A stretch of 36,557 nt of DNA from Segeticoccus rhizosphaerae (GCF_009192725.1 NZ_VOHR01000008.1:1-36557), one strand, 5' to 3'; positions 7,393 to 12,746 are shown, counted from the stretch's first letter. Notes: generated by a model not told the origin, from the sequence alone. Made by a program: numbers and translations.

Positions 7393-7440
7393 CCGCTGCA
7401 CCGGCTGGCTCCGTGGCTGGCCAGGAAGGTTGGGGGGAGC

Positions 7441-10400
7441 ATGGCCAAGCCGTTCGTCGACCGGTTGACGCCGCTGCTGGAAACCGGGGACGTCGTGGGT
7501 GGTCGCCTGCTGCTCGACTCGCTGACCGGTCAGGAGCTGGCGGAGGCCAAGCAGTGGTTCGCCGGGAGCCGTCGCTTCGTCCGCGACCTGCACGCGCTCG
7601 ACTTCGCCGGTGCGGACCATGAGGAACGGTCTCGCGCGCGGTGGGAGGCCTCCTGGATCATCGCGATGTGTGCGGTCCGATTGTGCGGGCCGACCACCGC
7701 GGCACGCCGGGTGCCGTGGCGCGACCTGTGGGACTTCATGCGGTGCGACGGTGAGGCGCAGTTCGTCCACCTGCTCTGGGAGACCGACCGGGCCTGGGTG
7801 GGACAGTTCGCCGAGACCGCGAGCGGGGTCGGACTCGGCGGACAGGCGCGCAACGTCAACGCCAACCTGTCGCGCGTGGTGCGCGCGGCCGTCATCCACC
7901 ACGGGCTGCCCTGCCCGAGCGGCGCAACCTTCCTCGCCGCGTGGTCGGCGGGCACCGGAGCACCCACCTATGACGTCGCCGCGGTGCGCGACTGGCTGGC
8001 CCGCGACCCGCTGATGCCCGACCTGCTGCACCACTACCTCGCCTCCGGCCACTGCGGCCAGGTGCCGGGGCTGCCCGATGCCGTCCCAGAGCTTGTCGCT
8101 GCCGGGGTGCTGGATCGAGAGGCTTTGCTCGAGCACGTGCTCGGGCTGATGACCGCCCCGCAGCGCCCGGCCAGCCAACGCGTCCTCGCCGGAGTCTTCA
8201 CGGCGCTCAACCCGCGGCCGGATGAGATCACAGGCGGCCTGACCTATCTGCTCGGCGTCATCTCCACTGCCCACGGCTCGGTCGGTCAGGTGCTGCTCCC
8301 CATGGCGCTGGAACTGGTCGATGACCCCGACGGGCTGCTCGAGCTCACGACGGTCGTCGCCGGCCGCCCAGAGCGCCGCCAGAAGTCGATGCTGCTGAAG
8401 GCGCTGGTTGGACCGTCCCTGCGCGCGAGGGTCGGCGACTCGGCCGTGCGGGAGGCGCTGCGCGTCCTCGCGACTGACGACGACGCGGCCTTCATCTCCA
8501 AAGTCACCGAGGCGCTCACCGCCCTCGGGGACGATGGCACCGACTCCGAGTCCGACAGCGAGGCGCCGGTGCTGGGGCTGTGGGGCCTGGAGCCTGCCAC
8601 CCATTTGGAGGTGGACGCCTTCCGCACCCGGTGGCGCAAGCAGTTGCCACTGGGGCAGGTGCCGCTGTCCACCCTCATCGGCGAGTTGAACGACCTGTTC
8701 CTGGCTGGTGGCCTGCGCCCGGTCTGGCCGGTCGCGCTCGAGCTGGCCGACACCGCCTGTCGGATGCCGCGCAAGCCGGCCGGGCTGGCTGACCTCCTTC
8801 GCCTGCTCGCAACGTATGCCGTGGAGGTACCTCGCCCGCGCGAGCTCCCGCCATACGTCGCGGCCCTCGCCGCCCAGAGTGGGCGCAGCAAGGCGCAGAT
8901 GGAGGCGCGTCGGCTCGGCTCGCTGTTGGCGGCCGTCGACGTGGACGACTACGTCGCGGGGTTGCGGCAGGCCGGTGCGCAGGACGTGCCGCCGCGGGTG
9001 CGTGGGCTGTGGCAGCGTGGCGCCCCGATCAACGTGCTGCCCTCGACCCTCCGGGTGGACGATCCGGTGCTCGACGTGCCCGCCCTGCGGCGCCAGCTCG
9101 AGGCGACGAGCTCGTGGCACGGAATGCAGGACAACGACCTGGTGGTGGTGCGGCCGGACTACGTCCAGCGCATGGAGCGAGTGAACCTGACCTTTGCCGA
9201 CCGGCTCCTGGCCGTGGCGGTGCGGGCGATCCACGAGCACGGCGTAGCCGATTCCCGCCGCTTGTTGAGGGGCATCGAGCGGCCCGGCCACCCCTTCCCG
9301 GTGCCGGGGGCCATCGACCTGTGGGCAGCCGGGCACCTGGACGCCACGACGTTCTGGCGGCTTGCCCACCGGTCAATGACGGCGCTGGAGCACCACCGTC
9401 GGCTCACGAACAACCCGTGGCTCGACTACGCGGGACAGGCGACGATCGTGGAGGCCGTGACCGCAGCCGGGGACGAGACCATCGTGCTGCCGGTGTGGCT
9501 CAACGAAGCGACCACGCGGCTCACCTTCCTGCTGGCGTGCGAAGCGTTGGCCAAGGTCGAGCAGACGTCGGTGCTGCTGTCGACCCCCACCTATCGCGAG
9601 GGCACGCTCGACTTCGACGACCTGCTCGGCCGGTTGCGAGCGGTGGCCGCCGGCGGCGTCTCGGTCGGGCCGCTGGACCTGGTGCAGGCGCTGCACCGGT
9701 TGCGGCCGACCGACCCGGCTCGCGCTGTCGAGCTGGCCCCGCTCGAGGTCATGACTGACGCGGCGTTCACCAGCCCGGACGGCGACGAGGCCTGGGACGC
9801 GGTGGAACTCGTGCGGACCTGGCTGGCCCGGGGTGGGCTGCCTCCGCTGGACCCCGTCGTGGAGGATGGCGAGTGGTCGACGGTGGCGGTGGCTCCGGTC
9901 CCGTGGTCGCGTTGTGCCGCCCTGCCAGAGGAGTTGCGCGCCGACCCGTGGTGCCCGGGCCCCATGGTCGACGCCGTGCGGATGATGCCGCTCTGGGGAG
10001 ACCGGTGCGCCGCTCTGGACCGTCCCGAATGGGATGGCTACGGCGCGTTCCCGACCCTGATCGCCGGTCCGCTGGGGCTTCCCATGCACGACCGGTTTCT
10101 CCAGCTGATGACACGCACCGGCCAGGGGGGTGTGGACGTCGTCGTGTCCACCATGCTGTCGGTGTTGCGGCTCGATCGGCTCGACCCGCAGCTCGCCGCG
10201 GAGGCCGCGCTCCGGCGACATGCGGTGGGGACGCTGGAGCTGGCGGCGATCAACTGGTCGGCCTGGGTTGCTTTCGAGTTCGGTGGTTTTCGTGGATTGT
10301 GGCCGTCACTGCTGGAGATCGCGGCCGCGCTGTGTACGGTCCCAGAACCGCTCGCGGAGCTGCCCGCGCTGATGGGCCTGCTCAGCGACTACGCACATGA

Positions 10401-10554
10401 GGTGCCCGAACCCGTCATACCGGAATCGTTGCGCGCCTTCGCCGACGGTGCAGGGAACGCGCGGGGTCGGACGGAGGCGCGGGCATTGGTCGAGGCACTT
10501 TCGATGACCGCCCCGGACGCCCTGGATGAGACCGACGAGCGGGTGTCGGCATGA
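7441..10554 (+). CDS. Large helical protein of unknown function, partner of a SWIM protein (DUF6493-like)
   Basis: The 1037-residue cytoplasmic protein has no signal peptide or membrane segment. It looks almost entirely alpha-helical, with Leu/Ala-rich helices recalling HEAT-like repeats. I see no nucleotide-binding, protease or nuclease motif. It contains an internal duplication: residues about 423-500 (GGLRPVWPVALELAD ... TYAVEVPRP ... EARRL) resemble about 948-1022 (GGFRGLWPSLLEIAA ... DYAHEVPEP ... EARAL). An acidic Ser/Asp linker lies near 365-375. Large proteins of this general kind (DUF6493 in Streptomyces; compare MolR/YehI beside YehQ in E. coli) are known next to SWIM zinc-finger genes, and that context is my main basis. 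The start ATG has GGGGGAG just upstream. The stop overlaps the SWIM start (ATGA 10551-10554), so the two are translationally coupled and probably form a complex. Function not known. Confidence 0.8.
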   Translation: MAKPFVDRLTPLLETGDVVGGRLLLDSLTGQELAEAKQWFAGSRRFVRDLHALDFAGADHEERSRARWEASWIIAMCAVRLCGPTTAARRVPWRDLWDFMRCDGEAQFVHLLWETDRAWVGQFAETASGVGLGGQARNVNANLSRVVRAAVIHHGLPCPSGATFLAAWSAGTGAPTYDVAAVRDWLARDPLMPDLLHHYLASGHCGQVPGLPDAVPELVAAGVLDREALLEHVLGLMTAPQRPASQRVLAGVFTALNPRPDEITGGLTYLLGVISTAHGSVGQVLLPMALELVDDPDGLLELTTVVAGRPERRQKSMLLKALVGPSLRARVGDSAVREALRVLATDDDAAFISKVTEALTALGDDGTDSESDSEAPVLGLWGLEPATHLEVDAFRTRWRKQLPLGQVPLSTLIGELNDLFLAGGLRPVWPVALELADTACRMPRKPAGLADLLRLLATYAVEVPRPRELPPYVAALAAQSGRSKAQMEARRLGSLLAAVDVDDYVAGLRQAGAQDVPPRVRGLWQRGAPINVLPSTLRVDDPVLDVPALRRQLEATSSWHGMQDNDLVVVRPDYVQRMERVNLTFADRLLAVAVRAIHEHGVADSRRLLRGIERPGHPFPVPGAIDLWAAGHLDATTFWRLAHRSMTALEHHRRLTNNPWLDYAGQATIVEAVTAAGDETIVLPVWLNEATTRLTFLLACEALAKVEQTSVLLSTPTYREGTLDFDDLLGRLRAVAAGGVSVGPLDLVQALHRLRPTDPARAVELAPLEVMTDAAFTSPDGDEAWDAVELVRTWLARGGLPPLDPVVEDGEWSTVAVAPVPWSRCAALPEELRADPWCPGPMVDAVRMMPLWGDRCAALDRPEWDGYGAFPTLIAGPLGLPMHDRFLQLMTRTGQGGVDVVVSTMLSVLRLDRLDPQLAAEAALRRHAVGTLELAAINWSAWVAFEFGGFRGLWPSLLEIAAALCTVPEPLAELPALMGLLSDYAHEVPEPVIPESLRAFADGAGNARGRTEARALVEALSMTAPDALDETDERVSA

Positions 10555-11879
10555 GCTCCTTCGCGGCGGAGTCGGTGCTGACTCGCTCGCCCGAGAGCCA
10601 ACGCCTCGAGCTGGCGACCGGACTCGGTGTCACGCCAACGGGGCTGGTAGAGAGCCCGGTGTTCTTCTCCGGCTTCCTGGACCGGCCTGATGTGGCCGCC
10701 TCCGGCCTGCTTGCCGTCGCGGACGTGGCCGCCAGTCGGTATGCCGACGCCGGACTGGCCGCGCGCCTCGCCTCGATGGACCCGGTCGTGACGGCCGGTG
10801 GAACCTGCCTGCGCTTCGAGTCGTTCTCGGCGTGCAACGGTGTGCACGCTCGGTTTGACCTGCTCCGCGAGGGATTGGGCGGCGGCGAGGTCGGCTTCGG
10901 CACGACGAACGTCGACATCAACCCTCCCCTGCGCAAGGCCCTGGCCAGGGTCAACCGGGCCGAGGCGATGCACCTGAGCGTCGGGCGGGACGAACTGCGC
11001 GCGTCGTCGCTGGCGGGCACGCATGTGGAACGCAAGGTCAACCTGCCGGAGCGGTGGGTCCGGGGCCTGGCGGAGGTGCCGGCGCTCACTGCGGCGATGA
11101 CGCGCGTCGCCGAGCTTCGCGGGCCGGCGATCGCGCGCTTCTTCTCGACCCTCCCGCGGGTCGCCCCGCCGGGGCCGTCGATGAACGTCCTGCCGATGCC
11201 CTCGGGGTGGCGCCTTGCGACCCGCGCGCTGCCGAAGTCCTTTCCGCTACCTGGTGTCTCGCGCCTCCGCGGTGCCGACCGAATCATCCGGCACGCCTCG
11301 CGTCTCGCGGTGTACGTCAACGTCAACGGCACCACGGCCTGGGTGTTCGACGTGCCGGGCGGCCGCTTCACCCTGGTGCTCAGCCCCGATCCCTTCCGGG
11401 GCTTCTCGGGCGAAGGCACCCTGCTCACGCTGCTCACCGACAGTGACGCAGAGTCGCACGGGCGACGAGTGCTCGCCGAGCTCGGCTGGACGCCGCTCGT
11501 CGACCCGAAGGACTTGGCCGAGCGCACCGGCCTGGGCCCCGGCAAGGTGGCTTCTGGCCTGGGCTGGCTCGCCGCCTGCGGGCGACTCGGCTACGACCTG
11601 ACGGAAGGCGCGTGGTTCCACCGCGAGTTGCCCATCGACAGCGACAAGGTCTTGCGCCGCAACCCCCGCCTTGCCTCGGCCCGCAAGCTATTGGAAAGTG
11701 GCTCTATCAGGGACGGCAGCGACGGCTGGAAGGTGGAGGGTAGCTACGGCAACCGCTACACGGTGACGAAGCAGTTGCGCTGCGACTGCGCCTGGGGCGT
11801 CGAGCACGACGGCAACCGTGGCCCCTGCAAGCACGTCTTGGCGGCCATCCTCACCTTCCGCGACTCGGGTTTGGACTGA
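10551..11879 (+). CDS. SWIM zinc-finger protein
   Basis: The 442-residue protein ends in a SWIM zinc finger of form CxCx(n)CxH: C411, C413, C426 and H428, within LRCDCAWGVEH and RGPCKHVLAAIL. SWIM domains bind DNA or proteins in transposases, SNF2 proteins and bacterial multi-subunit systems. The preceding 400 residues match no domain I can name. They contain a run reading VNVNGTTAWVFDVPGGRFTL and a winged-helix-like stretch before the finger (ELGWTPLVDPKDLAERTGLG). It is coupled by ATGA to the large upstream gene. The usual further partners of such pairs, a MoxR-type AAA ATPase and a stand-alone vWA protein, are missing here. The gene converges on the DUF1294 gene with an 11-base gap. The role is unknown. 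Confidence 0.85.
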   Translation: MSSFAAESVLTRSPESQRLELATGLGVTPTGLVESPVFFSGFLDRPDVAASGLLAVADVAASRYADAGLAARLASMDPVVTAGGTCLRFESFSACNGVHARFDLLREGLGGGEVGFGTTNVDINPPLRKALARVNRAEAMHLSVGRDELRASSLAGTHVERKVNLPERWVRGLAEVPALTAAMTRVAELRGPAIARFFSTLPRVAPPGPSMNVLPMPSGWRLATRALPKSFPLPGVSRLRGADRIIRHASRLAVYVNVNGTTAWVFDVPGGRFTLVLSPDPFRGFSGEGTLLTLLTDSDAESHGRRVLAELGWTPLVDPKDLAERTGLGPGKVASGLGWLAACGRLGYDLTEGAWFHRELPIDSDKVLRRNPRLASARKLLESGSIRDGSDGWKVEGSYGNRYTVTKQLRCDCAWGVEHDGNRGPCKHVLAAILTFRDSGLD

Positions 11880-11890
11880 CCGCACCCCTG

Positions 11891-12503
11891 TCAGGGCAGT
11901 GCGAAGGGTGCCTCGGACACGAACCATGCAAGTGCCACACAGTTGGTGACAACCGTGCACCAGAAGATGGTGCGGAACGGTTGTTTGACCGTCTTGTGCC
12001 GGAAGACCTGTCGTGCGACCAAGGCACCCGGCCAACCGCCCACCAGGGCGATCGTGTGAAGGGTGGACTCCGACGTGCGCCATCTACCCTGCTTCGCTGC
12101 GGACTTGTCCGCGCCGTAGAGCACGAACGCCACTGCGCTGAACAGTCCATAGGCAGCCAACAACACGACGTGAATCTGATCCTCCACCAACAGGACCACC
12201 TGGAGAGCGAAGAACAACACGGCGGAGGCGGAAGCCACTAGTACTGCACTGGTCCTTGTGCTGCCGGCTCGTCCGTGGGCCGCGTACCGCACCCGTGAGA
12301 CGCGTGCCGGGTTACGCTCGTCACGAGTCTCGACGGAGGTGACCTCACAACCGGGGGGCAGGCCTCGGCCCACGCGGGAACGCACTCACGTGCACAAAGA
12401 CACGCGAGCCTCCACCGGCGGGAGTGATGAAGCCGAAACCCCGGGCGTCGTTCCAGTCCTCCAAAACCCCGCGCTGAGACCTGGCGCTGTTGTCTGAAGG
12501 CAC
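11891..12503 (-). pseudogene. Cold-shock domain-DUF1294 membrane protein, frameshifted
   Basis: Two frames together make one familiar protein. From GTG 12503 (AAGGAG at 12512-12517 on plus, eight bases upstream) a cold-shock domain is read: RGVLEDWNDARGFGFITP, then SRVFVHVSAFPRG. That frame hits a stop soon after the run of six C (six G at 12353-12358 on plus). Reading one base less in this run restores RPAPGCEVTSVE and continues into the second frame to the stop at 11891. The second part carries three membrane segments and the DUF1294 signature (YGADKSAAKQGRWRTSE, then GGWPGALVARQVFRHKT). The intact product would have about 204 residues. This may be a real disruption, a phase-variable homopolymer or a sequencing error; if the two parts are translated separately, the second could start at GTG 12385. 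Confidence 0.8.
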
Positions 12504-12613
12504 GCTTCCCGCTCCTTGGCTCGGATATCCCCAGGCTGGGCCGTGTGACCCCCGGTTCCGGCGCAATAACGCGGACGGAACAGGTACCGTCACCCGGCGC
12601 GCGGCGAGGCCGT

Positions 12614-12646
12614 GGTGGGGCGGCATCCCCTGGTTGCCGCCCCACC
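12614..12646 (-). terminator. Strong hairpin terminator after the Tad operon
   Basis: A perfect 12-base-pair stem (12614-12625 with 12635-12646, arm GGTGGGGCGGCA) closes a nine-base loop about 100 bases beyond the tadC stop on the minus strand. There is no T-tract, which is common for actinobacterial terminators. It also lies upstream of the cold-shock/DUF1294 gene and would separate it from pilus transcription. Confidence 0.65.
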
Positions 12647-12746
12647 GGATCCCCCTGCCGCTCGGGTCCCCAACCCGATAGGGGTCTCACATCTGGCTGA
12701 AGGTGCCCCCGCCGGCGTCTACGATAACGACGTCGGACGCGTGGCG

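What the first reader, a model, noticed from the sequence alone, without database searches (positions are those of the whole stretch)
7441..11879. Coupled large helical protein and SWIM zinc-finger protein without their usual ATPase partners
A 1037-residue, apparently all-helical protein with no recognisable catalytic motif overlaps (ATGA) a 442-residue protein ending in an intact CxCx12CxH SWIM finger. Related large-protein/SWIM pairs in other bacteria tend to sit with a MoxR-type AAA ATPase and a vWA protein, an arrangement discussed for conflict or chaperone-like systems. Here the pair stands alone, right after a two-component operon on the same strand. It may be a minimal form of such a system, or may use trans-encoded partners. 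This is the strongest candidate in the window for an undescribed system.
Basis: partly seen in the sequence, partly recalled or inferred. Interest (0 to 1): 0.65.

Follow-up and report, generated by a model that had tools for sequence, protein, structure and literature searches.

The report
PCNA-like clamp–SWIM protein plus HEAT partner
Two tightly linked bacterial genes encode a large all-helical scaffold and a protein predicted to combine a PCNA-type DNA sliding-clamp fold with a DNA-binding helix and a zinc finger; the pair recurs in many bacteria without the reverse transcriptase that accompanies the same clamp protein in type XIII retrons.

Summary
In detail: a 1037-aa all-helical protein (A, 7441-10554) and a 442-aa SWIM protein (B, 10551-11879) overlap by ATGA. 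The pairing is conserved: of 44 loci recruited with B alone, 38 carry an A homologue next door, in either gene order. A belongs to the unstudied DUF6493-DUF7824-DUF7825 (HEAT-like) family. The MoxR/vWA premise fails: no such genes recur nearby, and neither protein matches E. coli YehM or YehQ.

Two results go beyond the finding. (1) B is homologous over most of its length to the SWIM protein of type XIII retrons. A bona fide type XIII locus (WGR/HEAT-ARM–SWIM–RT) has the same layout, but this pair and its relatives have no RT. (2) The AlphaFold2 model of B shows that residues 37-281 form a two-domain PCNA/9-1-1-type clamp (VIA Z 17.8, 213 residues, 3.0 Å), followed by a winged helix and the SWIM finger.

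The pair is a ~5-kb insertion in a backbone conserved in three sister genera, so the adjacent two-component system is not part of it. Most likely it is a DNA-engaging clamp complex. Ring formation, DNA encirclement and a role in phage defence or genome stress are inferred, not shown.

The parts
7441..10554 (+). Gene A: 1037-aa all-helical, HEAT/ARM-like protein; divergent member of the DUF6493-DUF7824-DUF7825 family
   Evidence: ORF. Profile-profile match of the window-clade A proteins to the DUF6493-type A proteins over 810 columns, E 7.9e-71. No family over cut-off by itself. AF2: only helices, low confidence.
8008..8523 (+). Most confidently modelled part of A (about residues 190-361): stacked helix pairs, HEAT/ARM-like
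   Evidence: pLDDT mostly 65-86. Matches to beta-catenin ARM, PP2A-A, importins and condensin HEAT subunits at Z 8-9, below the level that is informative for helical repeats.
10551..11879 (+). Gene B: 442-aa clamp-wHTH-SWIM protein; homologue of PADLOC SWIM_XIII
   Evidence: ORF; SWIM_XIII E 4.2e-43; non-circular hhalign to a real type XIII retron SWIM protein E 1.6e-30 over 366 columns.
10659..11393 (+). PCNA-type two-domain clamp fold (residues 37-281), four beta-alpha-beta-beta-beta units
   Evidence: AF2 model pLDDT 74.9, pTM 0.76. The 50 PDB hits shown by Foldseek are sliding/checkpoint clamps, best E 1.7e-9. VIA Z 17.8, rmsd 3.0, 213 aligned. BFVD hits are mostly PCNA, beta-clamp and other processivity factors.
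11412..11621 (+). Winged helix-turn-helix (about residues 288-357)
   Evidence: Weak Pfam hits HTH_PafC, DprA_WH, HTH_24; helix-helix-helix-strand-strand in the model.
11781..11834 (+). SWIM zinc finger CxCx12CxH (C411, C413, C426, H428)
   Evidence: Pfam SWIM E 0.0017, below cut-off but over it; C426 invariant, C411, C413 and H428 at least 90% conserved in 25 homologues.
7393..12746 (.). Inserted segment (A, B and a DUF1294 gene) relative to three sister genera
   Evidence: HPF-HK-RR directly followed by the T2SSF genes in L110, L111 and L112; in L111 and L112 the RR-T2SSF gap is 95 and 42 bp against 5354 bp here.

Best explanation
A and B form a horizontally acquired two-protein complex. B is a PCNA/9-1-1-like clamp subunit (residues 37-281) carrying a winged helix and a C-terminal SWIM finger. 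Its likely job is to engage DNA, probably as a ring or partial ring of B subunits, with the winged helix and SWIM finger giving structure or strand specificity. A is a long HEAT/ARM-like superhelix made from the same mRNA in step with B; it likely docks on B and either loads/regulates it or is the part that acts when B engages its target. The same kind of B protein, with an analogous (not detectably homologous) WGR/HEAT-ARM helical protein in the same layout, is placed next to a reverse transcriptase in type XIII retrons. The window pair is therefore best seen as the RT-less sibling of the type XIII accessory module: a stand-alone DNA-sensing module, most plausibly used against foreign DNA or in genome stress. 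Shown: gene anatomy, conserved pairing, homology of B to the retron SWIM protein, absence of RT in the neighbourhoods, insertion into the backbone. Predicted by model: clamp fold, helical nature of A. Inferred: complex formation, ring, DNA binding, biological role.
For: Pairing in 38 of 44 loci in two gene orders, over Actinomycetota, Pseudomonadota, Planctomycetota and Sericytochromatia. A/B identities correlate. B matches PADLOC SWIM_XIII, and an L052-free profile matches the SWIM protein of a type XIII retron identified by its three markers WGR_XIII, SWIM_XIII and RT_XIII. PCNA fold. wHTH and SWIM. All-helical A. Only one RT in the genome, a group-II-intron type. Empty sites. Patchy presence, 4 of 149 genomes of the family and 8 of 396 of the phylum sample.
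Against: No experiment. The clamp model rests on a 4-sequence alignment. A two-domain internal repeat is not visible by sequence, and PDB sequence searches find no clamp. Pore-lining helices are not enriched in K/R overall (11.0% against 11.4% elsewhere in the clamp), though R128, R168, R171 and R238 are conserved. Neighbourhoods are not defence islands; in Streptomyces the pair sits in a fixed chromosomal slot. A shows no detectable homology to the retron WGR/HEAT-ARM proteins. B persists without A in a few loci (L051, L070, L072).
Confidence: 0.5

Rival explanations
1. A DNA repair or genome-maintenance accessory module: B is a 9-1-1-like checkpoint clamp for damaged DNA ends and A a HEAT scaffold, with no role in immunity.
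For: Checkpoint clamps (Rad9-Hus1-Rad1) are among the top structural matches of B; fixed chromosomal slot in Streptomyces and neighbours that are not defence genes.
Against: Patchy presence and recent insertion in this genome are unusual for core repair genes; sharing of B with a retron points to conflict.
Confidence: 0.3
2. A transcription or DNA-architecture regulator: the clamp fold is a non-encircling scaffold (as in UL42-type factors) presenting the winged helix and SWIM finger to operator DNA, with A as co-regulator.
For: wHTH and SWIM are DNA-binding folds; pore helices not enriched in basic residues; BFVD matches include herpesvirus processivity factors and a poxvirus late transcription factor.
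Against: No conserved target gene next to the pair; a 1000-aa HEAT partner is unusual for a local regulator.
Confidence: 0.12
3. A degenerate or minimal MoxR-vWA-SWIM system using trans-encoded partners.
For: Shared SWIM finger and large partner protein.
Against: Profiles of A and B do not match YehM, YehQ, YehL, YehP or YehI; no MoxR or vWA recurs near homologues.
Confidence: 0.03
4. A retron that lost its RT, with the msDNA made in trans.
For: B homologous to SWIM_XIII.
Against: The only RT in the genome is a group-II-intron maturase; none of the 43 other loci except L052 has an RT by motif scan; in the B tree the RT-linked L052 lies among RT-less pairs (unrooted, long branches), suggesting the retron is the derived form.
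Confidence: 0.04

Closest known systems
Type XIII retron accessory genes (PADLOC SWIM_XIII + WGR_XIII / HEAT-ARM_XIII + RT_XIII)
   Same: B is homologous to SWIM_XIII over most of its length, including the clamp region; a large helical-repeat protein is coupled to it by an ATGA overlap in the same order in L052.
   Different: No RT in the window pair or its relatives; A has no WGR domain hit and no detectable homology to WGR_XIII or HEAT-ARM_XIII. B scores 146 bits against SWIM_XIII, the retron's own SWIM 706 bits.
'SWIM zinc finger family protein' + 'DUF6493 family protein' pairs (PGAP names)
   Same: Same two families, adjacent, similar lengths.
   Different: Window A is too divergent for the Pfam cut-offs (E 0.38), and the gene order is reversed (A before B).
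PCNA / Rad9-Hus1-Rad1 sliding and checkpoint clamps
   Same: Residues 37-281 of the model superpose on the whole two-domain PCNA fold (Z 17.8, 213 residues).
   Different: About 13% identity; bacterial; extra winged helix and SWIM finger; no AAA+ clamp loader nearby; ring formation not shown. Bacterial DnaN has three domains per subunit (own knowledge).
E. coli yehL-yehM-yehP-yehQ (MoxR, vWA, SWIM) cluster
   Same: Large protein and a SWIM protein.
   Different: No profile similarity of A or B to any of its proteins; no ATPase or vWA here.

Membership tests
Type XIII retron | SWIM_XIII accessory protein | tested here: met
   B E 4.2e-43; hhalign without L052 E 1.6e-30
Type XIII retron | WGR_XIII or HEAT-ARM_XIII partner | tested here: not met
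   A and 21 homologues have no hit to these models; hhalign to the L052 WGR protein probability below 1%; the position is filled by an analogous helical protein
Type XIII retron | Reverse transcriptase adjacent | tested here: not met
   No RT motif in 43 of 44 loci; only a group-II-type RT in the genome
Type XIII retron | msr/msd non-coding RNA | tested here: inconclusive
   No Rfam match in the window; type XIII ncRNA may not be in Rfam
DUF6493-DUF7824-DUF7825 family (protein A) | Homology to curated members along the length | tested here: met
   hhalign E 7.9e-71 over 810 columns; relatives hit all three Pfam domains
DUF6493-DUF7824-DUF7825 family (protein A) | Pfam gathering score reached by the protein itself | tested here: not met
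   DUF6493 10.3 bits against a cut-off of 25
PCNA-type sliding clamp (fold of B) | Two-domain processivity fold over the whole domain | tested here: met
   Model residues 37-281, Z 17.8, rmsd 3.0, 213 aligned; prediction only
PCNA-type sliding clamp (function) | Ring oligomer encircling DNA, clamp loader, polymerase partners | not testable with these tools
MoxR-vWA-SWIM systems | MoxR ATPase and vWA protein in the locus | tested here: not met
MoxR-vWA-SWIM systems | Homology of the SWIM and large proteins to YehQ and YehM | tested here: inconclusive
   hhalign probability below 1%, but against single sequences rather than profiles

The most novel reading that the evidence does not exclude
Bacteria carry a stand-alone immunity or genome-surveillance module built on a PCNA/9-1-1-like clamp (two-domain subunit, with winged helix and SWIM finger) that assembles a ring on DNA and hands the signal to a giant HEAT-repeat partner; type XIII retrons arose by putting an RT/msDNA in control of this clamp.
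Probability: 0.3. Interest if true: 0.85.

Novelty: new variant of a known kind. Interest (0 to 1): 0.62.

Why it matters
Type XIII retrons list a SWIM protein as an accessory of unknown action. If that protein is a PCNA-like clamp, their mode of action becomes testable, and so does that of a much wider RT-less family (27 of 296 sampled genomes of the class carry a SWIM_XIII-type protein). A two-domain PCNA-type clamp in bacteria outside DnaN would also bear on how processivity and checkpoint clamps evolved, and would give DUF6493, DUF7824 and DUF7825 a biochemical context. I found no paper on this in the library searched; it does not hold most subscription journals, nor the type XIII retron classification paper.

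Tried and rejected
MoxR/vWA relation: tested with YehI/L/M/P/Q, no signal. Two-component operon: rejected by the empty sites. Phage or prophage cargo: no relatives in IMG/VR by three scans or in the phage records. Defence-island context: 116 nearest neighbours gave only scattered PADLOC hits such as mad3 (4) and single PDC hits. Trans RT: the sole genomic RT is of group-II-intron type. RT_XIII-like RTs in 3 of 396 Actinomycetota genomes have no A or B relative nearby. Sequence support for the clamp: internal-repeat test and PDB sequence searches gave nothing, as expected at 10-13% identity. Pore-charge enrichment: neutral. Fold matches of A (importins, beta-catenin, condensin, Scc2) are generic for helical repeats and the model is poor, so no specific relation is claimed. 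Flanking direct repeats marking the insertion: none convincing. Literature: no paper names DUF6493; type XIII retron and clamp searches found nothing relevant; the retron classification paper is not held. The first hhalign of B to L052 was circular because L052 was in the profile; it was repeated without it.

Full report
Observation. B ends in CxCx12CxH. By itself A reaches no Pfam, NCBIfam or PADLOC family, and B reaches only a sub-threshold Pfam SWIM hit, weak winged-helix hits, and the PADLOC model SWIM_XIII at E 4.2e-43.

Conserved pairing. I recruited relatives with B alone: 3 further genome loci, 4 of 149 family genomes counting this one, 8 of 396 phylum genomes counting this one, 27 of 296 class genomes with the PADLOC model and 8 plasmid records. 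No phage record and no IMG/VR contig carries it. In 38 of 44 loci an A homologue lies beside B on the same strand. Most have order B then A; the window and its nearest relatives have A then B, and these A-then-B loci group together in the B tree. One genome carries two modules end to end (L056), two loci carry tandem A genes (L048, L069), and one shows only an A remnant (L072). A and B identities correlate at 0.91. Annotators call the partners 'DUF6493 family protein'. The window-clade A profile matches the others over 810 columns at E 7.9e-71, and several relatives hit DUF6493, DUF7824 and DUF7825.

Not a MoxR system, not part of the two-component operon. No neighbour family recurs across loci beyond generic ones and vertical synteny in Streptomyces, and a Pfam scan of 116 nearest neighbours lists no MoxR or vWA among recurrent families (only the top 25 of 126 families are shown, so single occurrences could be hidden). 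Profiles do not match the E. coli MoxR/vWA/SWIM cluster proteins. In three sister genera the backbone HPF-HK-RR runs straight into the T2SSF genes (L110-L112). In two of them the RR-T2SSF gap is 95 and 42 bp; here it is 5354 bp filled by A, B and a DUF1294 gene. The pair is thus an insertion behind a backbone regulator. GC and GC3 of A and B resemble the upstream genes.

The retron link. The most divergent plasmid relative (Methylobacterium bullatum, L052) has an RT right after its SWIM gene. Its three genes score WGR_XIII E 1.5e-251, SWIM_XIII E 4.8e-213 and RT_XIII E 6.6e-176, so it is a true type XIII retron. Its large helical gene overlaps its SWIM gene by ATGA in the same order as in the window. 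A B profile built without L052 still matches its SWIM protein over 366 columns at E 1.6e-30. The large proteins do not match. None of the other 43 loci has an RT by motif scan. The one RT in the window's genome is of group-II-intron type. The window pair therefore shares one homologous part and the layout with type XIII retrons, but fails two defining features (RT; WGR/HEAT-ARM partner), and I do not file it as a retron.

The strand/helix order of residues 37-281 is four beta-alpha-beta-beta-beta units. The 50 PDB matches shown by Foldseek are PCNA or 9-1-1 clamps (best E 1.7e-9). VIA-align gives Z 17.8, rmsd 3.0, 213 residues over the whole PCNA chain, far above the Z 7-8 usual for models without a real match. 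The viral library gives mostly PCNA, beta clamps and other processivity factors. A winged helix (about 288-357) and the SWIM finger follow. Sequence methods do not see the clamp, as expected at about 13% identity. Conserved arginines sit on three of the four would-be pore helices (R128, R168, R171, R238), but the helices as a whole are not enriched in basic residues, so DNA encirclement is open.

Fold of A. All helices, no strands; only about residues 190-361 are modelled with fair confidence. Matches are to HEAT/ARM proteins at levels that are uninformative for helical repeats.

Mechanism proposed. B binds DNA as a clamp-like oligomer with wHTH/SWIM specificity, and A is its superhelical partner, loader or effector. 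In retrons an RT/msDNA has been added to a similar pair. In a B tree the retron SWIM (L052) falls among RT-less pairs (support 0.93, long branches, unrooted), hinting that the RT-less form is the older. Defence or foreign-DNA control is favoured slightly over repair because of the retron link and the patchy, inserted distribution. It is weakened by the absence of defence-gene neighbours and the fixed chromosomal slot in Streptomyces.

Verdict. No function is demonstrated.

Noticed in passing
window 11891-12540 (-): DUF1294 ORF preceded in another frame by a cold-shock-domain-like stretch (RGVLEDWNDARGFGFITPAGGGSRVFVHVSAF): a probable CSD-DUF1294 fusion gene with a frameshift or sequencing error.
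   Followed up: partly
L056 (4006-13175): One genome of the same family carries two modules end to end in the order B-A-A-B, showing both gene orders side by side.
   Followed up: partly
L072 (8773-8912): B is intact but only the first ~45 codons of A remain; L070 and L051 have B without A. B may be retained alone.
   Followed up: no
L107, L108, L109: Three RT_XIII-like reverse transcriptases in Actinomycetota without A or B relatives nearby; retron type unassigned.
   Followed up: partly
L052 11252-11567: 316-bp gap between SWIM and RT genes of the Methylobacterium type XIII retron, a plausible msr/msd site; not analysed.
   Followed up: no
G000:C12:514-597: A second SWIM protein in the same genome at a contig edge, unrelated to this pair as far as tested.
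   Followed up: no
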